A stretch of 55,424 nt of DNA, from contig JASEHD010000001.1 in NCBI GenBank assembly GCA_030019075.1, positions 1 to 55,424 of the forward strand, given 5' to 3'. Position numbers and translations under genes: made by a program. How positions within the stretch are numbered: the stretch's first letter is position 1; each line of letters opens with the position of its first letter. This DNA comes from Bacteroidota bacterium. Its GTDB lineage: Bacteria; Bacteroidota; Ignavibacteria; UBA10030; SZUA-254. Shown piece by piece: positions 28,869 through 48,951 of the stretch. A model generated the notes under the pieces. It saw only the letters and a program-made list of their open reading frames with translations. It was not told the origin of the DNA and did not search any database.

Positions 28869-29348
28869 CTACGACCATTCGTCGAAATTGTAAACAGTGG
28901 AACCTTTGTGTGGGAATTGTTTCCAATCTACCACGATTCCTTTCCGGACAGGGTTTTGTAAAATGTATTCGATTTGTTTCCGAAGGTCTTCGCTGTTTCG
29001 TATGATATGGTCGTAATAATCCTTCTGCCAATGAAATTCATGTCGATGTTGATACAACCAATAACCGGTTCGTTGTTTGAATCCGTTAACCATTTTTAAA
29101 ATGTTTGCATCATCAGATTTTCCTTCGATGATCAGATGTAAATGATCCGGCATGAAAAGATACATGTGAATATCGCATTGTTGCCTGTGCGCTTCTTCTA
29201 ATAATGTATTTCTGAAATATTCCACGATGTTGTTATTCGTGAAAACCGATTTTCTTTCTTGAACGCACAGTGTAAATACAACGATTTGGTGCCCCGTATA
29301 ACACTCAGGTGTCAATCGATGATGTTTTTCCCGTATTATCTTTCCCAT
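28869..29348 (-). CDS. REP-associated tyrosine transposase (RAYT, Y1/HUH type)
   Basis: The 159-residue protein is a Y1 transposase of the IS200-like fold. It has the strand IVVFTLCVQERKSVF, the HUH motif in MPDHLHLIIEG (His69, His71) and the catalytic tyrosine in HWQKDYYDHIIR (Tyr111 or Tyr112), followed by ILQNPVRKGIV. RAYTs cut and move REP hairpins. Here the gene is flanked on both sides by REP units of one family, with a nearly identical 120-bp long unit at 28478 and 29396. That is the expected layout of a REPtron. The stop codon again lies in a GTAGCGC sequence. Confidence 0.93.
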   Translation of the reverse strand: MGKIIREKHHRLTPECYTGHQIVVFTLCVQERKSVFTNNNIVEYFRNTLLEEAHRQQCDIHMYLFMPDHLHLIIEGKSDDANILKMVNGFKQRTGYWLYQHRHEFHWQKDYYDHIIRNSEDLRKQIEYILQNPVRKGIVVDWKQFPHKGSTVYNFDEWS

Positions 29349-29802: not shown

Positions 29803-30198
29803 ATGCTTGAGCAGAAAATTATACAATTTTTTAAAAACATAGACGCAGCAGTCGCAGTTTACCTGTTTGGTTCAGCAGGAACTGAGCATGAGCGATCTGA
29901 CAGCGACATCGATGTGGCAGTCTTATTTATAGCCGATACTGTGCCAGATGGTTTGCAGCTCGTTCAAATGCAGCAAGATCTCACTGATTTTTTAGTGAAC
30001 GAAGCCGATATCGTTTGCTTGAATAAAGCTAATGTTATTTTGAAAATGCAAGTCTTAAAAAAGGGGAAAAAGTTGATTGATCGCGACCCCCGCACTACAA
30101 ACATGTTCTTCACACGGACGATTAATGAATATGATGATTTGAAACGTATTCGCAAGCCAATCGAATCGCAAATTCTAAGAGGAGGGCTGCATGGTTGA
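29803..30198 (+). CDS. mntA: MntA-like minimal nucleotidyltransferase (antitoxin)
   Basis: The 131-residue protein has the minimal nucleotidyltransferase motif GS-X10-D-X-D (Gly23-Ser24, Asp35, Asp37) in LFGSAGTEHERSDSDIDVAV. Characterised MntA proteins AMPylate a tyrosine of HepT and so silence the toxin. It overlaps the HepT start by 8 bp. It lies directly after the REP arrays and between two polysaccharide blocks, as is common for accessory toxin-antitoxin modules. Confidence 0.9.
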   Translation: MLEQKIIQFFKNIDAAVAVYLFGSAGTEHERSDSDIDVAVLFIADTVPDGLQLVQMQQDLTDFLVNEADIVCLNKANVILKMQVLKKGKKLIDRDPRTTNMFFTRTINEYDDLKRIRKPIESQILRGGLHG

Positions 30199-30616
30199 TA
30201 ACGATCTTATCATTTCGAAAATTAAAAGCATTCAGAAATGTCTTAAGCGGATTAAAGATGTAACCCGCTTTGACCCGAAAAGTTTAGAAGATATTGACGT
30301 GCAGGATATTTTTACTTTAAACCTCCAACGCGCAATACAATCGACTTTGGATTTGGCATCACATATCGTTGCATCGGAAGGATTTGGTATGCCGGATTCT
30401 CTTAAAGAAGATTTCATCATCCTCGAAAAAGCGAATATCATTTCTCGTGAGCTAACGAATAAAATGGTGAAGATGGTTGGCTTCAGAAACATTGCCGTTC
30501 ATGAGTACCAGGAACTTGACGTTGAAATGCTCAAATCTATTCTTCAATATCATATTACCGATTTGGAAGAGTTTTATACAGCCATCGTAAAACATTTTGC
30601 CGTAAATCATCCCTAA
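30191..30616 (+). CDS. hepT: HepT-like HEPN ribonuclease toxin
   Basis: The 141-residue all-helical protein belongs to the HepT (DUF86) group. The active site RX4HXY is intact: Arg99, His104 and Tyr106 in FRNIAVHEYQELD. Known HepT toxins cleave RNA, and the tyrosine is the site AMPylated by MntA. GGAGG lies before ATG 30191. Both genes look intact, so this pair is probably functional. Confidence 0.9.
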   Translation: MVDNDLIISKIKSIQKCLKRIKDVTRFDPKSLEDIDVQDIFTLNLQRAIQSTLDLASHIVASEGFGMPDSLKEDFIILEKANIISRELTNKMVKMVGFRNIAVHEYQELDVEMLKSILQYHITDLEEFYTAIVKHFAVNHP

Positions 30617-31192: not shown

Positions 31193-32020
31193 ATGACAGA
31201 CATACAAACCACGACTGCAAATATAACAGCCGATAACGCTCCTGCTGTTCGTAAGTTCACCAAATGGCGGCAATATTACAACATAGTGAAAGAGCTTGCC
31301 ATTGTAGATTTCCGTAAAAAATATCACGACTCGACACTCGGCTATTTCTGGTCGATGCTTAATCCGCTTCTCAGGTTCGGTGTCTACCATTTTGTATTTT
31401 CATATCTCTTCGTCAGTAAACTTCACAAGTTCACACTCTATTTACTGACAGGTGTATTCTTCTATAATTTTTTTTCGGATATAACTTCAAGTGCAATAAA
31501 TGCAGTTCGAAGCCGCTCAAGATTAACAAAAACAATCTATTTCCCAAGGTATCTTTTAGTATTTTCTTCTAGTTTAACTGCTGTCTTTTCATTTACTATT
31601 AATGTGGCACTAATCTGGGTAGTAGTAATGATTTTTGACCATGTATCTTTTTATCAGATATTTACTGTAGTTCCATTTGTTTTATTAATCCTTTTTGGTA
31701 CCGGTATTGGTTTGATTCTTTCTATCCTTTTTGTTCACTTCCGCGACATTACAGAGATTTGGGGAGTCCTGCTCACACTCGGTTTCTGGCTCACACCTAT
31801 CATGTATGATCCAAAGTATGTACCAGAACCACTGGCAAACGTTGCGCTGCTTAATCCCATAGGACGAATTCTCGTTCTACTTCGTGCTTATTTAGTCTAT
31901 GGCGATGTCCCTTCGCTGCCGTTTTTCCTCTCGACTTCATTGCTATGTATTGGTATTTTTATTTTTGGACTGTGGCTTTTCCAGCGGTACGAACATAGAA
32001 TACCGGAGTACGTTTCATGA
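31193..32020 (+). CDS. wzm: ABC-2 type polysaccharide export permease (Wzm-like)
   Basis: The 275-residue protein has six predicted membrane helices and the family start: YNIVKELAIVDFRKKYHDST, LGYFWSMLNPLLRFGVYHFV. A late segment reads TLGFWLTPIMYDPKYVPE and LNPIGRILVLLRAYLVYGD, all typical of the O-antigen/teichoic acid ABC permeases. It overlaps the ATPase gene by 4 bp. With the ATPase it would export an undecaprenyl-linked finished polysaccharide. Confidence 0.93.
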   Translation: MTDIQTTTANITADNAPAVRKFTKWRQYYNIVKELAIVDFRKKYHDSTLGYFWSMLNPLLRFGVYHFVFSYLFVSKLHKFTLYLLTGVFFYNFFSDITSSAINAVRSRSRLTKTIYFPRYLLVFSSSLTAVFSFTINVALIWVVVMIFDHVSFYQIFTVVPFVLLILFGTGIGLILSILFVHFRDITEIWGVLLTLGFWLTPIMYDPKYVPEPLANVALLNPIGRILVLLRAYLVYGDVPSLPFFLSTSLLCIGIFIFGLWLFQRYEHRIPEYVS

Positions 32021-33636
32021 TTATTCTTGAAAATGTTTCTAAAGTCTTCCGGATCCCGCATGAACGTACTAAAACGTTGTACCACAAATTGCTTTCGTTT
32101 ACAAAGGCAGGTTATTCATACGAAGATTTATACGCATTGAAAAATATAAATATTCATGTTAAATCGGGCGAGTTCCTTGGTATAATCGGCAGAAATGGCT
32201 CGGGGAAGTCCACGCTACTCCGCATCATAGCCGGTGTGTATCGACCGACAGGTGGTAAGGTAATCGTCAACGAAGAAATTTCACCACTGTTGGAGCTTGG
32301 TTTGGGTTTCGATAACAGTTTTTCATGCCGAGATAATATTTATGTTTATGGTGCGCTGCTTGGTTATTCACGAAAACAAATGTCGGTGAAGGTTGATGAG
32401 ATATTGGCATTTGCAGAACTTGAACGATTTGCAGATGCAAAATTGGATACACTTTCTTCTGGTATGCGGGTGCGGCTTGCTTTTTCGATTGCAATCCAAT
32501 CTGTTGCACCAGTAATTTTAGTCGATGAAGTACTTGCAGTTGGCGATAAAGTGTTTGCCGAAAAATGCCGAAATGTTTTTAGAGCATTACAAAAAGAGGG
32601 CAGAACAATAGTATTTGTTTCTCATGATACAACTTCTATAAAGGAATTTTGCAATAGGGTAATAGTTATACACCAAGGGGAAATTGTTGGTGATGGTGAA
32701 CCAACGGAAATGGTAGAGTTTTACAACAAAAGAGTATTACCTGCTATAGACACAGTTGTACCTTACAATGCAAAGACAAGAAGTGCAGTATCCGTATTCG
32801 AGAAATCCTCCGATGGGGACTCACCTCCACAGTCGTTATCACAGGTTAAAGTTGAAGCAGTGATTGAAAAACCTGTTGTTAAAAAATCGAATGGATACAA
32901 TCTAAAGGAATTTTGGGAAAAACGACTTACTGATAATTTTAACTTGAGCGGTGTCGGTAATATCTCATTCGACGAGCGATACAACGAGTACCTTTACCAC
33001 CAGCGACTTACTGTTCTGAAGAAGGTTCTAAAAAAATACAAAATTATTCTTGAGGGAAAGAAAGTTTTAGATGTTGGATGCGGTATCGGATATTTTACGA
33101 AGTTCTATCTTGACCGGTCGGCAAAAGTAACGGGCTTAGACATCGCTCCGGTTGTCATCGATCGGTTGAAAAAATCTATCCCGAGTGCCGAATTCATTCG
33201 GGCGGATATTTCAAGCGCTGATGGACGTTTAAAGAAAATGTTCGATGTTATTCATTCCTTCAATACTATCATTCATATTACAGACGATGAGAAGTTCCAA
33301 ACAACATTGATGCATTTGTGTAAGATGTTGAAGATGGGTGGTTATTTATTTATCACAGATTATTTTGGGAAAACCGACTATGCACCTGCACCGCACGTTA
33401 AGTTCAGGAGCTTGGAACGTTACAAGATGATGAAAGAGCATGGAGTTGATATTCTTGAGGTATGTCCGATACACCGCTTCCTGAATAATAAACTAAAATC
33501 GTCTTCAATAAAAATTAAACCTGCAGTTATACCGATATTTCTACTTTTCGATAGCGTGCTCAACTTTATGAACATTCCGGGTGGTTTTGATTTGAAGTTG
33601 ATGATTGCTAAGAAAGTGGGAGGGAATAAAGAGTGA
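32017..33636 (+). CDS. wzt: Wzt-type ABC ATPase fused to a SAM-dependent methyltransferase
   Basis: The protein has 539 residues. Residues 1-245 form the ABC ATPase: Walker A GRNGSGKS at 58-65, signature LSSGMR at 146-151, Walker B VILVDE at 166-171 and H-loop His203. A Ser/Pro/Val-rich linker (about 250-290) leads to a class I methyltransferase with motif I LDVGCGIGYF at 351-360, TGLDIAP and a C-terminal LFITDYFGK strand. Normal Wzt proteins have a beta-sandwich glycan-binding domain there instead. In E. coli O8/O9a a separate methyltransferase caps the chain and Wzt recognises the cap. Here the capping enzyme (inferred) is joined to the exporter ATPase. Confidence 0.93.
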   Translation: MIILENVSKVFRIPHERTKTLYHKLLSFTKAGYSYEDLYALKNINIHVKSGEFLGIIGRNGSGKSTLLRIIAGVYRPTGGKVIVNEEISPLLELGLGFDNSFSCRDNIYVYGALLGYSRKQMSVKVDEILAFAELERFADAKLDTLSSGMRVRLAFSIAIQSVAPVILVDEVLAVGDKVFAEKCRNVFRALQKEGRTIVFVSHDTTSIKEFCNRVIVIHQGEIVGDGEPTEMVEFYNKRVLPAIDTVVPYNAKTRSAVSVFEKSSDGDSPPQSLSQVKVEAVIEKPVVKKSNGYNLKEFWEKRLTDNFNLSGVGNISFDERYNEYLYHQRLTVLKKVLKKYKIILEGKKVLDVGCGIGYFTKFYLDRSAKVTGLDIAPVVIDRLKKSIPSAEFIRADISSADGRLKKMFDVIHSFNTIIHITDDEKFQTTLMHLCKMLKMGGYLFITDYFGKTDYAPAPHVKFRSLERYKMMKEHGVDILEVCPIHRFLNNKLKSSSIKIKPAVIPIFLLFDSVLNFMNIPGGFDLKLMIAKKVGGNKE

Positions 33637-33679
33637 GTTGTATTCTTCATACTTTCTATTCTGAGAATAAAAGGATTAT

Positions 33680-35593
33680 ATGAAAATTACATATATCGTT
33701 GGTGTTTTTCCGAAATTATCTGAGACTTTTGTTCTGAGCCAGATCGTTGCTCTTATTGAGAGAGGGCATGAGGTCGATATTATTTCACTTACGCGATCCG
33801 GTGAACAAAAAGTTCATGATGAGGTAGGGAAATATGATCTAATCACAAAAACAAACTTTATCACCAGGAATTCATCGTACCTTGGGTTCGTGCTATCAGA
33901 AAAGCTTATTTCCTCACTAATATTTACCGATATTATCCACTCACACTTTGCTGCTGAACCGACGAACACCGCGTTAAAACTTTCGCGCGTATTTAATATT
34001 CCCTACGTATTTACTGCTCATGCATACGACATATTCATTAATCCCGATGCAACAAATCTCCGCGAGCGTTGTAATTTAGCTACGAAAATCATTACTGTTT
34101 CCGATTACAATAAAAAGTATCTCCTTAAAATGCTCGGCGATGATCTTGTCGGGAAGATGGAGATCATCCGTTACGGAATTAAAACTGATCGGTTTAAGTA
34201 CATAGCGAGGCACACCAAAGATCGATTGAGAATATTGCTCATCGGCAGATTCGTCGAGAAGAAAGGAATTCCGTTCGCCATCGAAGGTTTTGCGGAGTTC
34301 GCGAAGGAACAAGATAATGCCGAATTGAGGATTATCGGCGACGGTGCCCTAAGGGATGAGATCGTGGATCTTATAGCAAAACACAATCTGACAGAAAAAG
34401 TTATTTTGTTAGGAGATCAGCCACAGACCGCTGTTATCAAAGAAATGAATAAAGCGGATATATATCTCTTGCCGTCGGTGACTGCAGCTAACGGTGATAG
34501 TGAAGGTGTTCCCGTTTCGCTTATGGAGGCAATGGCAACTGGCTTACCCGTTGTTTCTACGTATCATACCGGTATTCCCGAGCTTGTTACCGATGGAGAT
34601 TCGGGGTTCCTTGTTCCCGAAAAGGATGCACATGCGATTGCGGACCGGCTGAAGCGGCTGGCTAAGGATGCCAAGCTTCGCACAGATATGGGACGCCGCG
34701 GTAGAAAAATGATTGAAGATGTTTATAACCATCCCAGGGAAATCGATCAATTGGAGAAACTGTTCACAAACCTTCTTGCGAAGAAATCTCTCGTCTCATC
34801 TATTTCCTTGGAGCAGCGTGCTCATCTCCAGCGGCGTATCGCCGACACCGTTGCCCAAATCATCGGTCAGCGTGAAGAACAAACGAAGAAATTTGATGAA
34901 AAGCTCTGTCCTTTAGGCGATCTGCTCAAAACGTTAGGTGATGTGAATCAGAAGAATGCTCTCTTGCAGCAGAAGGAACTTGAGATTACTCGTTTGCAGA
35001 CTGAGATGACAGAGCGCGAGAAACAATTGCGTGAATTTTCTGAGCGGTTAAAACGGGTCGAGGGTGAGCAGAAGAACACAAGCGATGCACTCTCGCGTGA
35101 GAAAGCAGTTCTCGCAGAGCGGAACGAACAATTAAAAGAGAGGAACAGTACCATCGATAAACTACAACAAACCCTCATTGAACGCGAAGGTTCCTTGCAG
35201 CACCTCACGGAACGTTTATCGGCTTCCGAATCTGAAGTGAGTTGGCGGAAAGATGAAATTGTAAAGTTACAGTCTGTGGTAAAAGAACGCGATGATCTAA
35301 TCAAACAAAAGGATAGGTTGATTCAAGAACGGGAAGATGAGCTACGCTTGAAGAGCGAGTTGATTCGGCAAAGAGACGAACAAATCAGTGAGCGTGATAA
35401 TGCGATAATGGAAAAAGATGACCAGATTCATCAACGAGTTGAGAAGATTCATAATCTTAACACCAAAATTCAGAATAAGAACCAGGATATAAAAGTTCTC
35501 CAGACTTGGCTTGACAACATCACCCGAAGTATCCCCTATCGGATCTATGCGGCTACTCTTCGTCCTATACTGATGCGAAAGAAGAAATTATAG
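33680..35593 (+). CDS. Family GT4 glycosyltransferase with a C-terminal coiled coil of about 200 residues
   Basis: The protein has 637 residues. The GT-B enzyme covers about 1-370 (YIVGVFPKLSETFVLSQIVA, HAYDIFINPD, LLIGRFVEKKGIPFAIEGF, GDSEGVPVSLMEAMATGLPV), like WcaL-type colanic acid enzymes. From about 410 to 612 the sequence is a long charged coiled coil (KELEITRLQTEMTEREKQLR, RDEQISERDNAIMEKDDQI). A basic, aromatic tail follows (ITRSIPYRIYAATLRP) that may touch the membrane or a partner. In E. coli O9a a coiled coil acts as a ruler of chain length; position next to the Wzt-methyltransferase makes a similar role here plausible. Confidence 0.93.
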   Translation: MKITYIVGVFPKLSETFVLSQIVALIERGHEVDIISLTRSGEQKVHDEVGKYDLITKTNFITRNSSYLGFVLSEKLISSLIFTDIIHSHFAAEPTNTALKLSRVFNIPYVFTAHAYDIFINPDATNLRERCNLATKIITVSDYNKKYLLKMLGDDLVGKMEIIRYGIKTDRFKYIARHTKDRLRILLIGRFVEKKGIPFAIEGFAEFAKEQDNAELRIIGDGALRDEIVDLIAKHNLTEKVILLGDQPQTAVIKEMNKADIYLLPSVTAANGDSEGVPVSLMEAMATGLPVVSTYHTGIPELVTDGDSGFLVPEKDAHAIADRLKRLAKDAKLRTDMGRRGRKMIEDVYNHPREIDQLEKLFTNLLAKKSLVSSISLEQRAHLQRRIADTVAQIIGQREEQTKKFDEKLCPLGDLLKTLGDVNQKNALLQQKELEITRLQTEMTEREKQLREFSERLKRVEGEQKNTSDALSREKAVLAERNEQLKERNSTIDKLQQTLIEREGSLQHLTERLSASESEVSWRKDEIVKLQSVVKERDDLIKQKDRLIQEREDELRLKSELIRQRDEQISERDNAIMEKDDQIHQRVEKIHNLNTKIQNKNQDIKVLQTWLDNITRSIPYRIYAATLRPILMRKKKL

Positions 35594-35613: not shown

Positions 35614-36738
35614 ATGAAAATTTCGATACTAAGTTTCGATATGGGTCATAATTGCCTTGGGCGGGCATATCTTCTTGGGAAAGTCTTACAGCGACGCTAC
35701 GATGTCGAGATCCTCGGGACGCAATTCCCCTCGTTCGGTTCCACAATTTGGAAACCTTGCGATACCGGTGAGTTTAAATATTACACGGTCAAGGGTGGGA
35801 AATTCCCCGATTATTTTGGGTCGGTAAGGGACCTTCTTAAACATATTTCGGGCGATGTAATTTACGCATCTAAACTTCGCTTCTCAAGTTATGGGATTGG
35901 GTTTCTCAAGAAATTATTCTCATGGAAGCCGCTTGTTCTTGATATAGATGATCTCGAAACATCGTGGTATGTACCTGAAGAGTGGAAGAAAAGAAGAGCT
36001 TATTCATTTCGAGATCCAACAGGTTATCATCACACAAAATGGATTCAGAGGTTTAAATGGTTTGCAAATGAAATCACAACAGTTTCTACTCAGTTACAGG
36101 AACGATATGGTGGGATTATAATTCCCCATGGAAGGGACACTGATTATCTAGATCCTTCTAAACACGATGGTTATGATCTCCGCTGCAATTTAGGAATCGA
36201 GGAAAAGAAAATTATCATGTTCCTGGGTACTCCAAGACCTCATAAGGGTCTGGAGGATGTAATTCGTGCGCTCGCATTTATCAGAAGGTCAGATATACGT
36301 TTTATTATAGTTGGCAAGGATTCCGATCTAAGTTATGAACAGAAATTACGGGAGTTGGGAGGCGATAGAGTCATCCTCTTGGATCAGATACCCTTCACTG
36401 AGGTTCCACGATACCTGAGTATTGCTGATCTCGTTGTCATCCCCCAGAGGCGGCATGAACAATCGTCGGGGCAGATCCCGGCGAAAGTTTTTGATGCTAT
36501 GGCAATGGCGAAACCTATTATCGCAACAAACGTCTCCGATCTCCCGAATATTCTTGACGGATGCGGTATCGTTGTCGAGCCGGGAGACATCGAATCTCTT
36601 GCATATGAAATTGAGTGGGTGTTCTCTCATCCTAATGAAATACATGAACTTGGTGAAAAAGCACGTGCTAAGTGCATCGCTGAATATAGTTGGGATGTAA
36701 TGGAAGAGCGACTTAAAAATATCTTTGATCGATTATGA
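35614..36738 (+). CDS. Glycosyltransferase family 4
   Basis: The 374-residue GT-B protein has an N-terminal domain (ILSFDMGHNCLGRAYLLGKV), a central KLFSWKPLVLDIDDLETSWY and a donor-binding C-domain (IIMFLGTPRPHKGLEDVIRA, EQSSGQIPAKVFDAMAMAKP). The usual EX7E motif is modified (Q-S-S-G-Q-I-P-A-K). It starts 20 bp after the coiled-coil GT and overlaps the next gene by 4 bp, so the set is one operon. Confidence 0.9.
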   Translation: MKISILSFDMGHNCLGRAYLLGKVLQRRYDVEILGTQFPSFGSTIWKPCDTGEFKYYTVKGGKFPDYFGSVRDLLKHISGDVIYASKLRFSSYGIGFLKKLFSWKPLVLDIDDLETSWYVPEEWKKRRAYSFRDPTGYHHTKWIQRFKWFANEITTVSTQLQERYGGIIIPHGRDTDYLDPSKHDGYDLRCNLGIEEKKIIMFLGTPRPHKGLEDVIRALAFIRRSDIRFIIVGKDSDLSYEQKLRELGGDRVILLDQIPFTEVPRYLSIADLVVIPQRRHEQSSGQIPAKVFDAMAMAKPIIATNVSDLPNILDGCGIVVEPGDIESLAYEIEWVFSHPNEIHELGEKARAKCIAEYSWDVMEERLKNIFDRL

Positions 36739-39700
36739 GTAACCGCAAGCACATATGTATTATCTCTCGAAGTCTTCCTTGGTACGACCGCGGTTCAGGA
36801 CACTTGCGATTCATTACTGCTATCGAGCTGATGCGAAAACACTTTGATGTTACTTTTGTTACGGAACGGTACTTCGAGGACGATGCCCATGCCGATTACC
36901 GATATGTTCAAGCTTTACAAAAACTTGGTGTCACCGTCTTGTTTAAAAATTTCAAACTCGAAAATGTTCTGCAAAACGATTTTGATGTAATAATATTCGA
37001 GTTTTTTGATACAGCTCTCCGCAACTTGGCATTCGTTAAGAAGATTCGTCCTGACCTTCCTGTGATTATTGATACTGTAGATGTTCATTTTGCACGTGAG
37101 CTTCAGATGGCAGAGGTGCTTAAGAGCGAAGATTTACTACGTAAAGCTTTGGAGACGAAAAGTAAGGAATTAAAGGTGTACGGGGATTCGGATGTTATTT
37201 GGACTGTGACGGATCATGATAGACAAATATTGCTGAAAGAGAATCCGCAGCTGTGTGTTAACGTTATACCAAATATCCATAAGCTAAAACCCATAAATAG
37301 AAACAATAACAACATAGAACGCAATACATTGCTGTTCATCGGGGGTTTCTGGCACCAACCTAACGAAGACGCTGTCTTATTTTTTCACGAGAAAATATTT
37401 CCCCATATAAGAAAGGAAATATCTGAGGCAAAACTTATCATTGTGGGTAATTCACCAACAGAAAAAGTGAAAGCACTAGCAAGCGAATCTGTGCAAGTTG
37501 TTGGTTGGGTTCCTGAAACGGAACCGTACTTGCAAAAAGCACACGTTTCAATAGTTCCCTTGCGTTATGGTGCGGGATTGAAAGGAAAAGTTGGTGAAGC
37601 GATGATGTCCGGTCTTCCAATAGTAACAACATCAGTTGGTATTCAGGGAATGGATGTTACTGATGGAGTGCATTTATTGGTTGCTGATGCACCAATTGAT
37701 TTTGCAAATAAAACAATCCAACTTCTCAAAGACGTTGAATTACAGAATGCATTATCGAAAAATGCTTATGACTATATTCGTACTCACTACACACCTGAAA
37801 TAGTAGAAGAAAAACTTCTTTTATCGATTGGGAAAGCAATAAACACACGCCAGCTCAGAGAAGAACAAATAAATGTCACAGAAAAAAGACAAGATCATGT
37901 ATTATCAATGGAGGACGGTTTACCATTTGTTTCGATTATCGTTCCAGTCTTCAATTCATCTTGCACTCTTGACCTATGTATACAAGCACTTTTAAATCAG
38001 AATTATCCGAAAAGTAATTATGAAATTATTATGGTAGATAATAACTCGACTGATGATTCTGTTGATATTATTAAAAAATACCCTGTTTCCCTTTATTTCG
38101 AAAAGAAAAAGCAAACATCATACGCAGCAAGGAACCAGGGCATTAAAAATTCAAAGGGAGAAATACTTTGTTTCACTGATTCTGATTGTATTACTGATAA
38201 TAACTGGATTGCAGAATTAGTAAAGTGTTTCTCCGAACCTAACATTGGAGGTATCGGTGGTCCTATCCTTGCCTATGAACCAACAACCCAAGTGGAAAAA
38301 TATATTGATGAGAATAGTTTAGTCACACATTCAAAAAAAACACATTTTCTTCCATTTGCCGCTACTGCAAATGCAGCTTACAGACGAATCATTTTTGAAG
38401 AGGCTGGTTTGTTTGAGGATAAATTTATAACGGGCAGTGATATGGAAATGTCTTGGAGGATGCAATCGAAAACACATTTCTCGATGGGTTTTACTGAAAA
38501 AGCGATCATTTTTCATAAACATAGAACAAATTTAAAAGATTTTACTTTCCAGAGAAGGCGAAATGGTCTAGCGAGCATCATACATGCCACTATGTTCGGT
38601 ATAAATAAAGAATATCCAAATGAGCGATATTCAAACAAATTCATTAAACAACGACTATCAACCGAGTTAAAGGGCTTTATTAAAAACTTTTTAAAAGTGA
38701 TTAGAATAATTATTTCGAAATGGAATCATAGTGAAGTAAATGAAAATATACTCATTCATCATATCGATAGATTAAGTTTTATCATGGGACAAATTGAAGG
38801 GATAATGAAGTATAGAATTCTTAAAATATTTTTCAGAATTCAACCTATTAAAGTAAATATAAGTCGTGTAGATGCTTTTAATGTTATGAAAGATTCAGTT
38901 AATTTAAATAAAATGAATTGGCAAACACGGGATATTGAAAATGATAAAACTAAGAACTTAGAATACAATAAAATGGTTGGAGAAGAAATAACAGAATATA
39001 AAAAAGTCCCAATCACAAAAGAATTGAAATTAGGTGGAATACATGATCAGGAAGCATGGCATTATTACTGGAGGCATGTAGATGCTAGGGTCAAAGAGCT
39101 GCTTGGGAATAAATATTGGTATCAGTTAGAGAGAAATGCTAATAGATTGAATTCCCCCAAGATCCTTAGTCTTGGTTGTGGGCACGGGGGATATGAAATT
39201 GCACTTGCAAAAAAATTACAATCGAATTATGAAATCATAGGGCTAGACTTAAATGAAGATATCTTAAAAAAGGCAGCAGAAATAGCTGATAAAAGTAAAT
39301 TAAATATAAAGTTTAATAAAGTAGATCTTAACTATATTAATCTCCCCAAAAATTATTTTGATATTGTTTATGCTCAAGCTTCTTTACATCATGTTATTAA
39401 TTTGGAACACTTATTTCATCAAGTATATGATGCGTTGAAAGACAAAGGTCAATTTTTCGTTGCCGATATAATCGGAAAAAATAGAGTGATATTGTGGGAT
39501 GAGAATTTGGAGTTTATTAATAAGATTATATTAGATATTCCAGAAAGTTATCGTAAAGATAAAGATGGTCGAATCGTTGAATTAATTAAGCTATATGCAA
39601 ATCCTGGTATGGAGGGTATACGTCAAGAGGAGATCCTCGGTCAACTATTGAAAATTTTTAGAAGTGAGTTTCTATATCTTCATAATGCATTTATTCGTTT

Positions 39701-39857
39701 TATCGCAACTCATCCAATTATAGGTGAAAATTTATCTGCTAATATTGAACAAAGTCAACAAATATTAAATCACCTAATAAGCGAAGATGATGATCAAATA
39801 GAAAAAGAGAAACTTCGCCCAACGGAAATGTTAGGAATTTTTAGAGTGAAAAAATAG
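36735..39857 (+). CDS. Three-domain protein: GT4 + GT2 + methyltransferase
   Basis: The 1040-residue protein combines three enzymes. Residues about 1-385 are GT-B/GT4 (ICIISRSLPWYDRGSGHLRF, LLFIGGFWHQPNEDAVLFF, PLRYGAGLKGKVGEAMMSGL). From about 396 a GT2 domain follows (FVSIIVPVFNSSCTLDLCIQ, VDNNSTDDSVDII, AARNQGIKNSKG, FTDSDC). From about 810 comes a class I methyltransferase (ILSLGCGHGGYEIAL, IIGLDLNEDILKKA, FDIVYAQASLHHV). Two transferases plus a modifying or capping methyltransferase in one chain would couple sequential steps on one glycan. Base composition becomes more AT-rich in the last two domains, which suggests assembly from different sources. Confidence 0.92.
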   Translation: MSNRKHICIISRSLPWYDRGSGHLRFITAIELMRKHFDVTFVTERYFEDDAHADYRYVQALQKLGVTVLFKNFKLENVLQNDFDVIIFEFFDTALRNLAFVKKIRPDLPVIIDTVDVHFARELQMAEVLKSEDLLRKALETKSKELKVYGDSDVIWTVTDHDRQILLKENPQLCVNVIPNIHKLKPINRNNNNIERNTLLFIGGFWHQPNEDAVLFFHEKIFPHIRKEISEAKLIIVGNSPTEKVKALASESVQVVGWVPETEPYLQKAHVSIVPLRYGAGLKGKVGEAMMSGLPIVTTSVGIQGMDVTDGVHLLVADAPIDFANKTIQLLKDVELQNALSKNAYDYIRTHYTPEIVEEKLLLSIGKAINTRQLREEQINVTEKRQDHVLSMEDGLPFVSIIVPVFNSSCTLDLCIQALLNQNYPKSNYEIIMVDNNSTDDSVDIIKKYPVSLYFEKKKQTSYAARNQGIKNSKGEILCFTDSDCITDNNWIAELVKCFSEPNIGGIGGPILAYEPTTQVEKYIDENSLVTHSKKTHFLPFAATANAAYRRIIFEEAGLFEDKFITGSDMEMSWRMQSKTHFSMGFTEKAIIFHKHRTNLKDFTFQRRRNGLASIIHATMFGINKEYPNERYSNKFIKQRLSTELKGFIKNFLKVIRIIISKWNHSEVNENILIHHIDRLSFIMGQIEGIMKYRILKIFFRIQPIKVNISRVDAFNVMKDSVNLNKMNWQTRDIENDKTKNLEYNKMVGEEITEYKKVPITKELKLGGIHDQEAWHYYWRHVDARVKELLGNKYWYQLERNANRLNSPKILSLGCGHGGYEIALAKKLQSNYEIIGLDLNEDILKKAAEIADKSKLNIKFNKVDLNYINLPKNYFDIVYAQASLHHVINLEHLFHQVYDALKDKGQFFVADIIGKNRVILWDENLEFINKIILDIPESYRKDKDGRIVELIKLYANPGMEGIRQEEILGQLLKIFRSEFLYLHNAFIRFIATHPIIGENLSANIEQSQQILNHLISEDDDQIEKEKLRPTEMLGIFRVKK

Positions 39858-39864
39858 TAAAATA

Positions 39865-41643
39865 ATGCGGATTGTTGAGAGAAAATATTTTTGGGTCATT
39901 GTCTTCTTCTTTATCATTATCCTTTTTTCTTTAATTAAGGCGGATTCTATTTTCAATTATTCTGTTTTTGATATAGATGAAGAATACACTGTTAAATTTG
40001 CTGTAGGATTCTTAGGGTATGATTTTAATCCTCGATGGTTTGGGTACCATACATTACCGATGTATCTACTTTCTACCGTCTATTTTATTATATATGGTAT
40101 TTATTCTATTTTTAATATTGTTTCTTCGAAGGTCGAGTTTGTTTCTCTGCTGTTCGATGATAATGGTGTCTTTTTTATTAGTGCAAGGATTGTATGTAGT
40201 TTAATCTATACTATAGGGTGTTTCGTACTTTCGATAATCATTTATAAGTCTTATCGCTCAAAAATCGGAGCAATATTTTTTTTCTTGGTTGCTAATTTTA
40301 TCCCTGATGCTATTTATGCGTCGAACAATATTCGAGTTGATACTTTCGTTTTTCTTTTCTTGAGTCTAACTATTTATTTTAGTACATATGCAGAAAAAAA
40401 ACCAGCCAATTTTGTTCTATCGATTATTTTTTGTGCTGCGGCATTTGCTTCAAAGATACCGGCAATAGTATTTTATCCGATATTATTTTTACAAACATTG
40501 ATTGATGTAAGATCGAAGATTTATCCAAAAAAGTACCTTATATATATTATTGCTTTACTTCCAACTTTCACTTTCATCTTCATGCCGTTTGCTTTTTTAG
40601 ATTTTAATTCTTATCGTCCGATCATTGATCAGTTAACTAATAGAGCATCAGGAGAATTTATACATGTAGGTAAAGTACATTTTTTTGATCTCGTAAGCCG
40701 ACTTAATGCTCTTATAAATATAATTGTTAATCAGGTGGGTGTATTTTCAATTATTGGTATGTTTTTTTCATTTGTTTATTCGATTATTTATGATAGAAAA
40801 CTTATTCTGCCTTTTCTATACTGCATTCTTTATGTCGCATCTTTCACAACAAGTCTAACGATTGATCATTACTGGCTCAGGCCAATATATCCCTTCTTCA
40901 TATTTTTTACAATTGTTTTATTGACAAGGAAAGATATTCTTAATAAACTCAGTGTAAAATTTGATAGATATTCAGGAAGTAAAAATGTTAAGTATAAATT
41001 GATTGCATTCACCACTTTTGGGATATTTATTTTCTTTATTATTTACTATTCTTTAAGTTTATATGGAAATGTTTTACTATATTACAAACATTGGCCAAAA
41101 AATGAAAAAGATACTCGTGTTGAAGCGAACAATTGGATTCAGCAGAATTTTTCTACAAATGATAAAATATGGTTAGAGGGTCAAATCCCACACTATTTAC
41201 CGAAGGTTTTTTCTAATGATACAATTACTAATAGGATAATTCCCCTGGGTTTTTATCTAAAACAAAATCAAAATAAAATATTAGATGATGCTTTCGAATA
41301 CTATTGTTCACAATCGAAAACGAAGTACAAGATTTTGAATGTGAGATTAATTGGCAATCATGCTGCAAATCCGTTCACCGTTAATATTTTAGAGAGGGTA
41401 CAAAAAATCAAACCGGGTGATTATGTGGTAATATCAAGTTATATTTATTCTAGATATTATAAAACTAATACTATGCAACAGTTATCTCGTATAACTTATG
41501 ACGCGCAAAAATATTACGCATTTTTAAGAAAACAAGAACTTAAAAAATCTTTTAAGGGTAGTGGACCCAATATCGATATTTATCAAATACGTGATTCGCT
41601 TTCTACAATCATGGCAGACACATTGTATAATCATAAAATGTGA
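39865..41643 (+). CDS. Membrane glycosyltransferase-like protein (GT-C, PMT/ArnT type)
   Basis: The 592-residue, AT-rich and very hydrophobic protein has about 10-11 membrane helices. An acidic first loop is present (FDIDEEYTVKFAVGFLGYDF), the place of the catalytic Asp in GT-C enzymes that use polyprenyl-phosphate sugars. The later loop ANNIRVDTFVF and the C-terminal periplasmic domain (EANNWIQQNFSTNDKIWLEG) fit this class. The following gene makes a polyisoprenyl-phosphate sugar synthase-like protein, which would supply the donor. The pairing is typical for periplasmic side-branch addition. Confidence 0.8.
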   Translation: MRIVERKYFWVIVFFFIIILFSLIKADSIFNYSVFDIDEEYTVKFAVGFLGYDFNPRWFGYHTLPMYLLSTVYFIIYGIYSIFNIVSSKVEFVSLLFDDNGVFFISARIVCSLIYTIGCFVLSIIIYKSYRSKIGAIFFFLVANFIPDAIYASNNIRVDTFVFLFLSLTIYFSTYAEKKPANFVLSIIFCAAAFASKIPAIVFYPILFLQTLIDVRSKIYPKKYLIYIIALLPTFTFIFMPFAFLDFNSYRPIIDQLTNRASGEFIHVGKVHFFDLVSRLNALINIIVNQVGVFSIIGMFFSFVYSIIYDRKLILPFLYCILYVASFTTSLTIDHYWLRPIYPFFIFFTIVLLTRKDILNKLSVKFDRYSGSKNVKYKLIAFTTFGIFIFFIIYYSLSLYGNVLLYYKHWPKNEKDTRVEANNWIQQNFSTNDKIWLEGQIPHYLPKVFSNDTITNRIIPLGFYLKQNQNKILDDAFEYYCSQSKTKYKILNVRLIGNHAANPFTVNILERVQKIKPGDYVVISSYIYSRYYKTNTMQQLSRITYDAQKYYAFLRKQELKKSFKGSGPNIDIYQIRDSLSTIMADTLYNHKM

Positions 41644-41652
41644 GTGTATAAT

Positions 41653-42561
41653 ATGTTATCAGTAGTTATTCCCGTTTATAATAGTGAATCGACTCTTTCA
41701 GAATTGTACAATCGGTTACAGCCAATTCTTCTTAATGTAAAAGAAGAATCCGAAATCATCTTTGTTGATGATGCGAGTCGGGATAATTCATGGAAGGTCC
41801 TTGAAGAATTGCACAAGCAAGACACGAGGGTAAAAATAATTCAGCTTATGCGCAACTTCGGTCAGCATAATGCCATCATGTGCGGATTCCACTATGCTCA
41901 GGGTGAGTATGTCATCACTATGGATGATGATCTTCAGAACCCACCCGAAGAAATCCCGAAACTCATTAGAAAAATAGATGAAGGATATGATTTGGTATAT
42001 GGAGAATATATCACAAAGCACCATGGAGGTATTCGCAATCTTGGTTCTGGCATTATTCAATTTATCTACAAGAAAGTTTTCAAGATGCATTCAAATATAA
42101 CAGCATTTAGGATCATCAGGAAAAAATTAGTTGAATGTGTAATAAAGCATGATAGGAGTTATGTTTTTCTTGATGGATTGCTCGCCTGGAATACAATTAA
42201 TATCGGGACAATTCCCGTAATGCATAACGCTAGAATTTCCGGTAAATCGGGATACGGTTTTTCCAAGCTACTTACTCTTGCTATGAATATGATTACGAAT
42301 TTTTCTATATTACCACTCCAGTTTGCGACCTGGTTTGGATTCAGTTTTGCGATTATTGGTTTCATATTAGCCGTATACTTTCTTTTTAAAAAGATTTTTT
42401 TAGGTATCCCAGTGGAAGGATTTACTGCTCTGATTGTCGCTGTGACAATTTTTTCCGGGATGCAATTGATTACCGTAGGTTTAATAGGAGAATACCTGGG
42501 ACGAATTCATATAAATATTAATGCAAAACCCCAGTACGAAATAAGGGAAATTATTGAATGA
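41653..42561 (+). CDS. Polyisoprenyl-phosphate glycosyltransferase (GtrB/DPM1-like GT2)
   Basis: The protein has about 302 residues from ATG 41653; GTG 41644, directly after the previous stop, is an alternative. Motifs are LSVVIPVYNSESTLSELYNR, IIFVDDASRDNSW, the family-specific MDDDLQNPPEEIPKL, and two C-terminal membrane helices (about 230-290). These enzymes move a sugar from a nucleotide to undecaprenyl phosphate. It likely feeds the GT-C protein just upstream. The acyltransferase gene overlaps its end by 4 bp. Confidence 0.92.
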   Translation: MLSVVIPVYNSESTLSELYNRLQPILLNVKEESEIIFVDDASRDNSWKVLEELHKQDTRVKIIQLMRNFGQHNAIMCGFHYAQGEYVITMDDDLQNPPEEIPKLIRKIDEGYDLVYGEYITKHHGGIRNLGSGIIQFIYKKVFKMHSNITAFRIIRKKLVECVIKHDRSYVFLDGLLAWNTINIGTIPVMHNARISGKSGYGFSKLLTLAMNMITNFSILPLQFATWFGFSFAIIGFILAVYFLFKKIFLGIPVEGFTALIVAVTIFSGMQLITVGLIGEYLGRIHININAKPQYEIREIIE

Positions 42562-43409
42562 ATCTAAAACAACTGTTAAGAGGAAATAGATATGTCCCTC
42601 TACAAAATCATAAAATGAATATTTTAAATCCAGTGGCCGAGATAACAATTCATCCTCGTGTATTAATTGGTGAGAATGTTACTATTGGGAAAAATACCAA
42701 AAAGGTCGATATCGGCTACGGTACTTTTCTGGGGAACAATATTTATATTGATACTCCGGAACTCTCCATCGGTGAGTACACAACCATTCATCACTCTACA
42801 ACAATTCATGGATATGAGAATATAAAAATAGGACATAATTGCTGGTTTGGACAATTTTGTATAATCGATGGAATTGGTGGTACAACAATCGGAAATAATG
42901 TCGGTGTTGGTGCACATTCACAACTTTGGTCACACATGAAATTCGGCGACATGACAGCTGGATGCAAATGGCATAATACGAAGAACCTTATTATTAAAGA
43001 TGATGTTTGGTTTGTAGGTCATTGTATTGTGTGTCCAATTACTGCTGAAGAAAAAGCGATGTTAATGGTCGGGGGTGTTGTATCGCAGGATATGAAGGCG
43101 AATCATATTTATGGAGGTGTACCCGCAAAAGATTTAACAGATAGAATTGGAACACAATTCAAAGAAGATATTACGATTCAAGAAAAGTTGGAAATATTTA
43201 ATAATTATTTACGCGAGTATGAGAAAATGGGAAATAACGTATCGTTTGTACGCATTAAGGATACCGAAGCTGCAAGTTACGTTCCTAGGAAACATACTCT
43301 GTTTTCAATTTCAGATCGGTCATATGTTCCGACGCGTTCGGAGGAAGAGTACCGTCTAATGAAATTTTTATTATATGAAAAAGCTAAGTTTATTCCAGTT
43401 AATAAATAA
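42558..43409 (+). CDS. Left-handed beta-helix (hexapeptide) acyltransferase
   Basis: The 283-residue protein shows hexapeptide repeats over about 25-180 (LIGENVTIGKN, LSIGEYTTIHHSTTI, IKIGHNCWFGQFC, TTIGNNVGVGAHS) and the closing GGVPAKDL. Hexapeptide transferases O- or N-acetylate sugars using acetyl-CoA. Directly following is an RffA-type aminotransferase; in several pathways the amino sugar made by such an enzyme is then N-acetylated by a hexapeptide enzyme, so the two may act in sequence. A C-terminal extension of about 90 residues is unassigned. Confidence 0.88.
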   Translation: MNLKQLLRGNRYVPLQNHKMNILNPVAEITIHPRVLIGENVTIGKNTKKVDIGYGTFLGNNIYIDTPELSIGEYTTIHHSTTIHGYENIKIGHNCWFGQFCIIDGIGGTTIGNNVGVGAHSQLWSHMKFGDMTAGCKWHNTKNLIIKDDVWFVGHCIVCPITAEEKAMLMVGGVVSQDMKANHIYGGVPAKDLTDRIGTQFKEDITIQEKLEIFNNYLREYEKMGNNVSFVRIKDTEAASYVPRKHTLFSISDRSYVPTRSEEEYRLMKFLLYEKAKFIPVNK

Positions 43410-43429
43410 AATTCAGTTTGTGATTTTTT

Positions 43430-44572
43430 ATGATTAAAATTCCATTCAATCGTCCATCAATCATAGGTAAAGAATTAGAGTACATTGCACAAGCGGTACA
43501 AGGCGGGCAAATCTCTGGCGACGGGCTATTCACAAAAAAATGCCACGCTTTGATTGAAGAAAAGTTCGGTGCTAAGAAAGTTCTCCTAACAACATCGTGT
43601 ACCTCGGGACTTGAGATGTCTGCTCTGCTTTGTAACATACAATCCGGGGACGAGGTTATTCTGCCATCGTTCACGTTTGTCTCAACGGCAAATGCCTTTT
43701 GTCTTAGGGGAGCTAAACCTATCTTTGTGGATATCGAACAAAAAACACTTAATATCAATCCTGATTTAATAGAAGCGAAAATCACAAATAAGACAAAAGC
43801 TATTGTTCCAATTCATTATGCAGGTGTTAGCTGTGATATGGATATAGTTATGGATATTGGGAGGAAGTATAAGATTCCTGTAATCGAAGATGCAGCTCAG
43901 GGTGTGAATGCAAAATATAAGGATCAATATCTAGGTACAATTGGACAGCTCGGCGCTTATTCCTTCCATGAGACTAAGAATTTCATCTCCGGGGAAGGTG
44001 GTGCTCTTGTCATTAACGACGAGCAGTACATCGAGCGTGCCGAGATTGTCCGTGAGAAGGGTACCAACCGAAGCAAGTTCTGGCGTGGTCAGGTGGATAA
44101 ATATACATGGGTGGATATAGGATCGTCGTATCTACCTTCAGATATCTTAGCGGCTTACCTTTACGCGCAGTTAGAGTCGATGGAACAGATCACAGCTGTA
44201 CGCAGAAAAATCTACAAGTATTATCTTAAAAAATTATCACCGCTCGAAGAGCGCGGGCTGCTCCGGCTTCCCCGCATACCCTCTTGGTGTCAGCCAAACT
44301 ATCACATGTTTTACATTCTTCTACAAACGCAGAAGATGCGAGATGGGCTGATGAAGACACTGAAAGATAACGGTATCATGGCAGTGTTCCATTATCTCCC
44401 ACTGCATACGTCTCCGATGGGGAAGAAATTCGGTTACAAAGAGGGAGAATTTCCCGTGACGGAAGATGTAAGCAAGCGGCTGTTGCGTCTTCCATTCTAT
44501 AATGATTTAACTGAGAGTGATCAGGAACGGATTGTTACGATAATAAATAATTTTGTTTCAGAAATTTCTTGA
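43430..44572 (+). CDS. rffA: dTDP-4-amino-4,6-dideoxygalactose transaminase (RffA/WecE type)
   Basis: The 380-residue DegT/DnrJ/EryC1-fold protein is close to WecE over its whole length (IPFNRPSIIGKELEYIAQAV, KVLLTTSCTSGLEMSALL, LPSFTFVSTANAFCLRGAKP, FRGQVDKYTW-like FWRGQVDKYTW). The PLP lysine is Lys183 in SFHETKNF. WecE converts dTDP-4-keto-6-deoxyglucose to dTDP-4-amino-4,6-dideoxygalactose (TDP-Fuc4N). No rmlA or rmlB is present in this window, so its substrate must come from elsewhere in the genome. Confidence 0.94.
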   Translation: MIKIPFNRPSIIGKELEYIAQAVQGGQISGDGLFTKKCHALIEEKFGAKKVLLTTSCTSGLEMSALLCNIQSGDEVILPSFTFVSTANAFCLRGAKPIFVDIEQKTLNINPDLIEAKITNKTKAIVPIHYAGVSCDMDIVMDIGRKYKIPVIEDAAQGVNAKYKDQYLGTIGQLGAYSFHETKNFISGEGGALVINDEQYIERAEIVREKGTNRSKFWRGQVDKYTWVDIGSSYLPSDILAAYLYAQLESMEQITAVRRKIYKYYLKKLSPLEERGLLRLPRIPSWCQPNYHMFYILLQTQKMRDGLMKTLKDNGIMAVFHYLPLHTSPMGKKFGYKEGEFPVTEDVSKRLLRLPFYNDLTESDQERIVTIINNFVSEIS

Positions 44573-44587
44573 TAAATCAAACGTTCT

Positions 44588-45316
44588 ATGTACAATAAAG
44601 AGTCTTGGAAACCGAGTAAATTTCAAAAAGATGCCAACTCCGGTGGATACATTCCGAATCCTTCATACGTTGGTGTTGGTTCCCGTTATGTATGCCAGCT
44701 CTACATAAACGATTATGTGAAACTTATACAGGAACATTGTTCTGGCTATCTGCTCGATTGCGGTTGCGGTGATGTACCGTATTACGAAATCTATCGAGAT
44801 AAAATCTCGGATGTTTATTGCATCGATTGGGAAAACTCACTCCACAAAAATCCCTACGTCGATCAGTGCGTAGATCTGAACAATCCGTTTCCGCTTGAAA
44901 GCAATTCATTCGATACTGTCCTCGCTGCGGATGTCCTTGAGCACATCTACAACCCTATGCTTTTTATGAATGAGGTCGCCCGTGTTGTTAAGCCCGGTGG
45001 CAAAGTTCTCATCATGGTTCCATATTACTACTGGGTCCATGAAGCACCGCACGATTATTATCGCTATACCGAGTATGCACTGAAAAAATTCTGTGATGTA
45101 AATAAACTCAACGTCGTATATCTTCAGCCCTACGGCGGTTATCCAGACATTCTCCTTGATTTGTTCAATAAAAAATATGTAACAAAAGAAACAGGCGTCC
45201 GGAGATTCTTAAAATTCAGCCGTTGGCTCCAGTCGACGAAATATTATAAAAATCTTTGCCAATCAACTGAACGACAATTCCCGCTTGGTTATTGTCTCGT
45301 TGCCCAAAAACCGTAG
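44588..45316 (+). CDS. SAM-dependent methyltransferase
   Basis: The 242-residue class I methyltransferase has YLLDCGCGDVPYYEIY (motif I), YCIDWENSLHKNPYVDQCV, NSFDTVLAADVLEHIYNPML and VVKPGGKVLIMVPYYYW. The HEAPHDYYRYTEYALKKFC segment is common in glycan-locus Methyltransf_11 proteins. It probably methylates a sugar of the polysaccharide; the target is unknown. It starts 15 bp after rffA. Confidence 0.9.
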   Translation: MYNKESWKPSKFQKDANSGGYIPNPSYVGVGSRYVCQLYINDYVKLIQEHCSGYLLDCGCGDVPYYEIYRDKISDVYCIDWENSLHKNPYVDQCVDLNNPFPLESNSFDTVLAADVLEHIYNPMLFMNEVARVVKPGGKVLIMVPYYYWVHEAPHDYYRYTEYALKKFCDVNKLNVVYLQPYGGYPDILLDLFNKKYVTKETGVRRFLKFSRWLQSTKYYKNLCQSTERQFPLGYCLVAQKP

Positions 45317-47147: not shown

Positions 47148-47217
47148 ATTTCGTGTGGATAGTTAAGTACTATTCCAAATAAATGGACATTAGTTCAAAA
47201 TATTGGACGATCAATCA

Positions 47218-47754
47218 ATGAATAAAATAAAAGACATACTAATAAATACAAATGCACAGCGAGTCATAAATATATTATTGGATTATCCGAGGGAAGAATT
47301 TCTTGAGAAAGAGATTCAGCGTAAATTGAGAATCAGCAAATCAGGAACCAATTATGCGTTAAAAGAATTGGTTGGTGCAGGGTTATTAATAAAAAATAAT
47401 CGTGGCAAACAAAATCATTGGTCGCTCAATTTCCATAATCCCATTGTGAAACAGATGAAAGTTATTTTATTACTCAATGCTCTATTCGATAAGCTGAAGA
47501 AGGTTTCTAAATCAATAATTCTATTTGGAAGCTCTTCACATGGTGGAGATGTAAACGACAGTGATATTGATTTGTTTATTATCAGTCATAACAGAGAGGA
47601 AATAGAAAGACTTGTTAAGAATCATAAATCAGAACGGAAGATACAAGCTATAATCCGCACAGATTTGCAATTTATCGAGATGAAACATACGGATCCGGTA
47701 TTCTATGATCAAGTAGAGCACGGAATCGTTATTTGGGAGGAAAAAAGTGAATAG
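47218..47754 (+). CDS. Winged-helix plus minimal nucleotidyltransferase protein (antitoxin-like)
   Basis: The 178-residue protein starts at ATG 47218; TTG 47203 is an alternative. Residues 1-70 form a winged helix (FLEKEIQRKLRISKSGTNYA, LVGAGLLIKNNRGKQNHWSL). Residues about 98-125 hold the GS-X10-D-X-D motif (Gly104-Ser105, Asp116, Asp118). In known modules such proteins pair with a HEPN toxin and may bind their own promoter. A strong GGGAGG box near its 3' end precedes a GTG that starts a HEPN-like frame now cut off by repeats. Confidence 0.87.
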   Translation: MNKIKDILINTNAQRVINILLDYPREEFLEKEIQRKLRISKSGTNYALKELVGAGLLIKNNRGKQNHWSLNFHNPIVKQMKVILLLNALFDKLKKVSKSIILFGSSSHGGDVNDSDIDLFIISHNREEIERLVKNHKSERKIQAIIRTDLQFIEMKHTDPVFYDQVEHGIVIWEEKSE

Positions 47755-47866: not shown

Positions 47867-48110
47867 CGGGACTGCCTCATAGCTTTCTTAGCTGGGAGGA
47901 TGTTCTACATCCGACCTTTGGTGTCAGGAAGGTCAACTTTCAGCAGTCCTTAGCTGGGAGGGGGTTCACACCTCCGACCTGTTCGGCGGCGAGGGTCAGC
48001 AGTAGACCAGCCCGACACCAGCCCGACCCGCCTGCGGCAGGCAGGCATCTTGGCTGGCGGGACTGCTTCCCAGATTGGGCGGGACAGTTTCCCAGTTTTT
48101 GGGTTTTAGA
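47771..48110. repeat. Second REP-like family, array left of the second RAYT gene
   Basis: Hairpins with conserved flanks recur: GCAGT-AGA-ACTGC (47780-47792), GGATGT-TCT-ACATCC (47898-47912) and GGGGGT-TCAC-ACCTCC (47960-47975). The last two share the 5' flank TTAGCTGGGA and the 3' flank CGACCT. Two blocks with CCCGCCTGCGGCAGGCAGG (47836 and 48026 regions) contain the GCCTGCC-type core. The array separates the broken HEPN gene from the second RAYT gene. Confidence 0.85.
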
Positions 48111-48152
48111 AAAAATTATTTACATTCAATAAAAAGTCAACACAGGGAAATT

Positions 48153-48939: not shown

Positions 48940-48951
48940 GTGTCGTATCCT

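What the first reader, a model, noticed from the sequence alone, without database searches (positions are those of the whole stretch)
32017..35593. Possible rearranged cap-and-ruler system: Wzt-methyltransferase next to a coiled-coil glycosyltransferase
In E. coli O9a one protein carries kinase/methyltransferase plus a coiled-coil ruler that sets chain length with the polymerase. Here the methyltransferase is joined to the ATPase, and a coiled coil of about 200 residues with a basic tail is joined to a GT4 enzyme. The same functional parts seem to be wired together differently. I know of no description of this arrangement.
Basis: inference. Interest (0 to 1): 0.65.

Follow-up and report, generated by a model that had tools for sequence, protein, structure and literature searches.

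The report
Glycan exporter-methyltransferase fusion beside coiled-coil glycosyltransferase
In an uncultured bacterium of the Bacteroidota group, the motor of a sugar-chain exporter carries its own methyl-adding enzyme, and the next gene joins a sugar-adding enzyme to a 30-nanometre coiled-coil rod; this looks like a known way of measuring and finishing surface sugar chains, with the parts joined in an unusual way.

Summary
32017-33636 is one ORF: Wzt ATPase (1-~240), variable linker, intact class-I SAM methyltransferase (~290-539), no Wzt_C carbohydrate-binding module. 33680-35593 is a WcaL/EpsE-type GT4 head, one unbroken heptad coil (415-616) and a basic tail. Both recur, in the same syntenic block, in one other genome (G013), where the coil is exactly six heptads longer and a second GT4 follows the tail. 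In searches of the class (about 390 genomes) the Wzt-MT fusion was seen nowhere else. In the same family 5 further Wzm/Wzt loci have coil proteins, each with a methyltransferase head and a Wzt without one: methyltransferase on the coil or on Wzt, never both. 'Same parts, wired differently' is therefore partly supported. Corrections: a GT on a ruler coil is already known (WbbB of Klebsiella O12, ORF7 of O4); by the published rule the distal head is the terminator, so the GT4 is a candidate terminating transferase; there is no kinase; the methyltransferase was added to an already CBM-less Wzt. The new element is the methyltransferase on the exporter ATPase. Chain-length control and capping are inferred, not shown. 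New variant of a known kind.

The parts
31193..32020 (+). Wzm-type ABC-2 permease, 275 aa
   Evidence: ABC2_membrane 6.6e-12; galactan Wzm model 1e-18, below its cut-off; 76-78% identical to G013 and G004
32017..33636 (+). Wzt ATPase fused to a class-I SAM methyltransferase, 539 aa (ABC 1-~240, linker ~241-289, MT ~290-539); no Wzt_C module
   Evidence: G013 orthologue 61% identical over the full length
32881..33636 (+). methyltransferase half; N-terminal signature EFWEKRL..NF.L.GVGNISFDERYNEYL, motif I VLDVGCGIG
   Evidence: elsewhere mostly a stand-alone 225-310 aa enzyme
33680..35593 (+). GT4 glycosyltransferase (1-~370), linker, coiled coil (415-616), tail (617-637), 637 aa
34922..35527 (+). 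coiled coil, residues 415-616, unbroken heptad register, about 30 nm if fully extended (arithmetic)
   Evidence: period 3.5, 0/2000 shuffles; single helix 417-616
35528..35590 (+). basic tail SIPYRIYAATLRPILMRKKKL, candidate membrane or partner contact
   Evidence: tail region 41% identical in G013; helix 620-632 in the model; hydrophobic moment only at the 89th percentile here, 99.6th in G013
35614..36738 (+). GT4 glycosyltransferase, 374 aa, candidate chain-building enzyme
   Evidence: Glyco_trans_1_4 3.2e-23
36735..39857 (+). three-module protein GT4-GT2-methyltransferase, 1040 aa, candidate polymerase or modifier

Best explanation
This is a variant of the coiled-coil (ruler) type of ABC-transporter-dependent surface-glycan assembly. 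Shown by sequence: the parts, their order, their co-inheritance in two genera, and coil length changing by whole heptads. Inferred: the coil protein is a membrane-bound scaffold whose basic tail sits at the membrane and holds chain-building GTs (in G013 a GT4 is covalently attached just past the tail). The N-terminal GT4 is held about 30 nm away at the distal end and adds a terminating sugar once the chain reaches it. The methyltransferase, carried on Wzt rather than on the coil, then O-methylates the finished or terminal sugar of chains presented to the exporter. Wzm/Wzt exports the product. My estimates: ruler/scaffold role of the coil protein 0.6; GT4 as terminator rather than chain builder 0.5; methyltransferase acting on the exported glycan 0.6, and on its terminal residue specifically 0.4.
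For: Head-coil-tail proteins lie in 10 of 39 Wzm/Wzt loci against 0 of 21 GT4 control loci without Wzt (p 0.008); in the family itself 7 of 8 against 0 of 7 (p 0.0012, or 0.0023 without one positive locus, the window). [quoted passage not shown] G013 is GT4-coil-tail-GT4 and G007 is MT-coil-tail-GT4, the same layout as WbbB and O7 ORF6. The coil differs between G000 and G013 by +7 and +35 residues in two anchored segments, whole heptads both times. In the family the methyltransferase is on the coil (G003, G004, G007, G008, G010) or on Wzt (G000, G013), never on both. Motif I of the methyltransferase and EX7E of the GT4 are intact. The genome has two Bac_transf-family matches as candidates for the first step and two Wzy_C/WaaL-type proteins.
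Against: No glycan structure is known for this uncultured organism. Only two genomes carry the arrangement. Wzt lacks the cap-reading CBM; its 11-member clade is CBM-less and includes loci with no long coil protein, so export here may not depend on a cap. Other methyltransferases in the cluster (36735-39857, 44588-45316) could make any methyl group. The GT4 head resembles ordinary exopolysaccharide GT4 enzymes, so it could be a chain builder. The tail's amphipathicity in G000 is not exceptional. The seven-locus association is small and the loci are related (2 against 5, about 1 in 21 by counting).
Confidence: 0.45

Rival explanations
1. The coil is only a scaffold and membrane tether that multimerises an ordinary chain-building GT4; it does not measure length. 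Chain length is set by the balance of synthesis and export, as in CBM-less galactan systems.
For: CBM-less Wzt clade; best NCBIfam match of Wzt is the galactan Wzt model, though below its cut-off; GT4 head is WcaL/EpsE-like.
Against: In the characterised coil proteins the distal head is the terminator (PMC11231755); methyltransferase heads sit in the same position in five relatives; coil length differs by whole heptads.
Confidence: 0.33
2. The Wzt-MT fusion is an incidental gene fusion: the methyltransferase decorates internal sugars and its place on Wzt has no role in capping or export.
For: The same methyltransferase type is otherwise mostly stand-alone, once fused to a GT4 protein (G155), and was not found beside Wzt in the neighbourhoods examined. 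In G004 an unfused Wzt of the same clade has a separate FkbM-like methyltransferase gene next to it (FkbM-like by eye, not scanned).
Against: The fusion is kept in two genera although the linker has diverged; it goes together with the GT4-headed coil, and both are absent from G004, whose Wzt groups with that of G013.
Confidence: 0.3
3. The fusion or the gene pair is an assembly or frameshift artefact.
For: The window comes from a draft genome in 226 contigs.
Against: Full-length 61% identical orthologue and the same neighbours in an independent assembly.
Confidence: 0.01

Closest known systems
WbdD/WbdA/Wzt of E. coli O9a and O8 (Klebsiella O3/O5)
   Same: ABC-dependent glycan locus; methyltransferase plus long coil with a C-terminal membrane/partner region among the parts
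   Different: Here the coil carries a GT4, not the methyltransferase; no kinase; the methyltransferase is on Wzt; Wzt has no CBM
WbbB of Klebsiella O12 (N-terminal terminating Kdo GT, coil, C-terminal polymerase GTs)
   Same: A GT at the distal end of a coil; G013 also has a GT after the coil, the same order of modules
   Different: GT4 head instead of GT99; in the window the C-terminal GT is missing or encoded separately; a methyltransferase on Wzt is additional
ORF7 of Klebsiella O4 (GT137-coil)
   Same: A single GT on a coil, with chain-building enzymes in separate proteins
   Different: Unrelated GT family; no methyltransferase-Wzt fusion described
ORF6 of Klebsiella O7 (MT-kinase-CBM-coil-GT2-GT2)
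   Same: Multi-module coil protein; relatives G007 (MT-coil-GT4) and possibly G179/G222/G282 (unassigned head-coil-GT2) have this layout
   Different: No methyltransferase on the coil in the window and no kinase
WsaE of the Geobacillus stearothermophilus S-layer glycan (MT-GT-GT; PMC2943079)
   Same: Methyl cap made by an enzyme encoded beside wzm/wzt
   Different: The methyltransferase is fused to GTs, not to Wzt

Membership tests
Coiled-coil ruler/terminator proteins of ABC-dependent glycans | gene lies in a wzm/wzt glycan locus | tested here: met
   wzm and wzt directly upstream
Coiled-coil ruler/terminator proteins of ABC-dependent glycans | long uninterrupted coil with a catalytic head at its N-terminal end | tested here: met
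   coil 415-616 after a GT4 head
Coiled-coil ruler/terminator proteins of ABC-dependent glycans | C-terminal membrane-associated amphipathic helix / partner recruitment site | tested here: inconclusive
   basic tail with a predicted helix, conserved in G013; moment at the 89th percentile in G000, 99.6th in G013
Coiled-coil ruler/terminator proteins of ABC-dependent glycans | head adds the terminal residue and coil length sets chain length | not testable with these tools
   needs mutants and glycan analysis
WbdD (methyltransferase-kinase or methyltransferase on the coil) | methyltransferase at the head of the coil protein | tested here: not met
   head is GT4
WbdD (methyltransferase-kinase or methyltransferase on the coil) | kinase domain (O9a type) | tested here: not met
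   no kinase family in the Wzt-MT, the GT4-coil or the eight other operon proteins scanned
WbdD (methyltransferase-kinase or methyltransferase on the coil) | methyltransferase sequence related to WbdD | tested here: not met
   no WbdD structure among 53 solved-structure matches at E<=0.01; sequence comparison only, so a shared fold is not excluded
Cap-reading Wzt | C-terminal Wzt_C carbohydrate-binding module | tested here: not met
   absent here; present in 20 of 24 long Wzts scanned
Wzt ATPase of O-antigen/teichoic-type exporters | ABC domain of Wzt type, paired with Wzm | tested here: met

The most novel reading that the evidence does not exclude
The methyltransferase on Wzt does the work of the missing cap-reading module: it captures the terminal sugar placed by the GT4 at the end of the ruler, methylates it, and so licenses export. 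Capping and export quality control would then be one catalytic step on the transporter itself, with the ruler protein carrying a GT terminator.
Probability: 0.18. Interest if true: 0.75.

Novelty: new variant of a known kind. Interest (0 to 1): 0.45.

Why it matters
Coiled-coil rulers are the best understood way in which bacteria set the length of ABC-exported surface glycans. A lineage in which the methyltransferase sits either on the coil or on the exporter ATPase gives a natural experiment on which couplings between polymerising, capping and exporting are essential. If the methyltransferase on Wzt gates export, cap recognition would be catalytic rather than lectin-like. The pair G000/G013, differing by exactly six heptads of coil, is a ready test of the ruler model outside Enterobacteria.

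Tried and rejected
AlphaFold of Wzt-MT with two sequences failed (mean pLDDT 35.7) and was not used. G013's C-terminal GT4 is not an orthologue of the window's next gene (27% over 164 aa, generic GT4), so a Rosetta-stone fusion was rejected; nor is it specifically related to G007's C-terminal GT4. 'MT replaced the CBM' was rejected: the fusion lies inside a clade of Wzts that already lack the CBM (100/100 support). 'The MT moved over from the coil' is not supported by sequence: the Wzt MT is closer to stand-alone MTs (best BLAST E about 1e-28) than to the coil MT heads (1e-6 to 1e-5). Coil proteins of about 760-796 aa near Wzt in G022, G032, G062 and G065 were taken as Wzz/Wzc-type chain-length determinants and not counted; only the G065 one was scanned (Wzz, GNVR, AAA_31), the others were judged by length and ending. 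The coil proteins in controls G047 (Wzz, scanned), G023 and G071 (edge fragments, not scanned) and a 296 aa coil ORF at the edge of a G028 Wzt locus were likewise not counted. A 619 aa Wzt in G318 carries no Pfam methyltransferase. The single genome-contig scan found only the G013 copy and distant methyltransferases. The Wzt loci were picked as best matches, so their number is not a census.

Full report
WHAT IS THERE. The window carries an operon-like glycan block from wzm (31193-32020) to a small methyltransferase gene (44588-45316), all on the + strand with short gaps or overlaps. Downstream of wzm are wzt fused to a methyltransferase (32017-33636), a GT4-coiled-coil protein (33680-35593), a GT4 (35614-36738), a GT4-GT2-MT protein (36735-39857), a GT-C-like membrane protein (39865-41643), an ArnC-like GT2 (41644-42561), a hexapeptide acetyltransferase (42558-43409), a WecE transaminase (43430-44572; 599.7 bits against a cut-off of 375) and a methyltransferase. 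The nearest named genome is filed as a 'Chlorobiaceae bacterium' metagenome assembly.

WZT-MT. The ABC half has all motifs and aligns to solved Wzt-type ATPases only over residues 34-239. The C-terminal half is a class-I SAM methyltransferase with an intact motif I and an N-terminal signature (EFWEKRL..GVG..YNEYLY). Among 24 long Wzts from the class, 20 carry the Wzt_C carbohydrate-binding module and only two, matching the two fusions, carry a methyltransferase. In searches of 100 relatives and 294 genomes of the class (the sets overlap) the fusion was seen only in G000 and G013. A methyltransferase search of 395 genomes of the phylum and 288 of the class found this enzyme type mostly as a stand-alone protein, once fused to a GT4 protein, and no further Wzt fusion.

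GT4-COIL. The head is an ordinary retaining GT4 by family models (WcaL, EpsE; below the equivalog cut-offs) and fold (BshA-type GT4 structures), with EX7E at 275-283. Residues 415-616 form one coil with an unbroken heptad register: hydrophobic power 3.46 at period 3.5 against 0.16 or less at 3.4 and 3.6, and no shuffle of 2000 reaches it. The COILS matrix was re-entered from memory, so its probabilities are relative; the periodicity test does not depend on it. AlphaFold, with two sequences only, draws a single helix 417-616, a break, and a short tail helix. At about 0.1485 nm per residue the coil would be about 30 nm long (arithmetic).

THE RELATIVE. G013 (also L048) has the same order: GT2, GT4, a nucleotidyltransferase gene, wzm, wzt-MT, then one unassigned 390 aa gene, then GT4-coil-tail-GT4 of 1049 aa; the GTs after that have diverged. 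Identities to the window: Wzm 76%, ABC half 74%, MT half 55%, GT4 head 57%, coil about 31%. Between fixed anchors G013 is longer by 7 and by 35 residues, six heptads in all, as expected if the register from head to tail must be kept.

OTHER LOCI. In the same family, the Wzm/Wzt loci of G003, G004, G007, G008 and G010 each have a coil protein with a methyltransferase head and a C-terminal tail after the coil: G003 MT-coil (518 aa), G004 MT-coil (549), G007 MT-coil-GT4 (952), G008 MT-coil (728), G010 MT-coil (747). G006 has none. In another family, G179, G222 and G282 have a head without a Pfam match, a coil and a GT2 (G179 and G282 scanned; G222 by its close match in length and ending). Counted together: 10 of 39 Wzt loci against 0 of 21 GT4 control loci without Wzt (p 0.008), and 7 of 8 against 0 of 7 in the family (p 0.0012). 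I set the criteria for counting after seeing the first loci, and Wzz/Wzc-type coils were left out by hand. In the family the methyltransferase is on the coil or on Wzt, never on both. That is seven related loci, so the association is suggestive only. G004 is informative: its Wzt groups with G013 (support 96/85), yet it lacks both the fusion and the GT4-headed coil, so the two features come and go together in this small sample.

ORDER OF EVENTS. The Wzt tree puts both fusions and G004 in a clade (100/99) inside an 11-member clade (100/100) whose other members are all short, without a CBM. The methyltransferase was therefore probably added to a Wzt already without the module; it did not directly replace it.

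HOW IT PROBABLY WORKS. [quoted passage not shown] PMC3482155). Applied here, which is inference, the GT4 is a candidate terminating transferase and the tail a membrane and partner contact; G013 has a GT4 just where WbbB and O7 ORF6 have polymerase modules. The methyltransferase on Wzt would methylate the finished chain at the exporter. The main alternative is that the coil only tethers a chain-building GT4 and that export in this CBM-less lineage does not depend on a cap.

COMPARED WITH WHAT IS KNOWN. A GT on a ruler coil, and varied distribution of modules, are published. I found no description of a methyltransferase fused to Wzt among the held papers that my searches returned, but two key papers were not held and I could not survey protein databases, so absence is weak evidence. 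Verdict: new variant of a known kind, moderate interest.

Noticed in passing
window 29803-30616, 48940-49823, 47203-47754, 54322-54654: Two MNT/HepT-like gene pairs and two further lone nucleotidyltransferase-type genes are scattered through the glycan locus; one pair lies between the upstream GTs and wzm, and a homologue of its nucleotidyltransferase sits in the same place in G013 (L036:14134-14565).
   Followed up: partly
window 28869-29348 (-) and 48075-48698 (+): IS200/Y1-type transposase-like genes flank the block (the second is only a weak match); the first is 78% identical to one near the end of the G013 contig (L036:106-582), hinting at exchange of the block.
   Followed up: no
window 39865-42561: PMT_2/GT-C-like membrane protein next to an ArnC/PgfS-like GT2 with two C-terminal hydrophobic stretches: two parts of a possible three-component periplasmic side-chain system; no flippase gene recognised nearby.
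   Followed up: partly
window 42558-44572: Hexapeptide acetyltransferase plus a strong WecE match (dTDP-4-amino-4,6-dideoxygalactose transaminase) suggests an acetamido-dideoxyhexose such as Fuc4NAc in the glycan.
   Followed up: no
L069:9537-12395 (G007): Coil of the MT-coil-GT4 protein is built from near-identical 21-residue (three-heptad) repeats such as RLVKELDGVRSDRAAKQEIVD, a plausible way for ruler length to change quickly.
   Followed up: no
L085, L086, L087; also L044:8016-8939: Coil proteins in Wzt loci whose N-terminal head (PLDIFVETGTFEGETIE...) has no Pfam match in the ones scanned; it may be an unrecognised class-I methyltransferase or a new terminator head.
   Followed up: partly
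L036:9768-10940 (G013): Unassigned 390 aa protein with a signal-like N-terminus between wzt-MT and the GT4-coil gene; no Pfam or NCBIfam match.
   Followed up: partly
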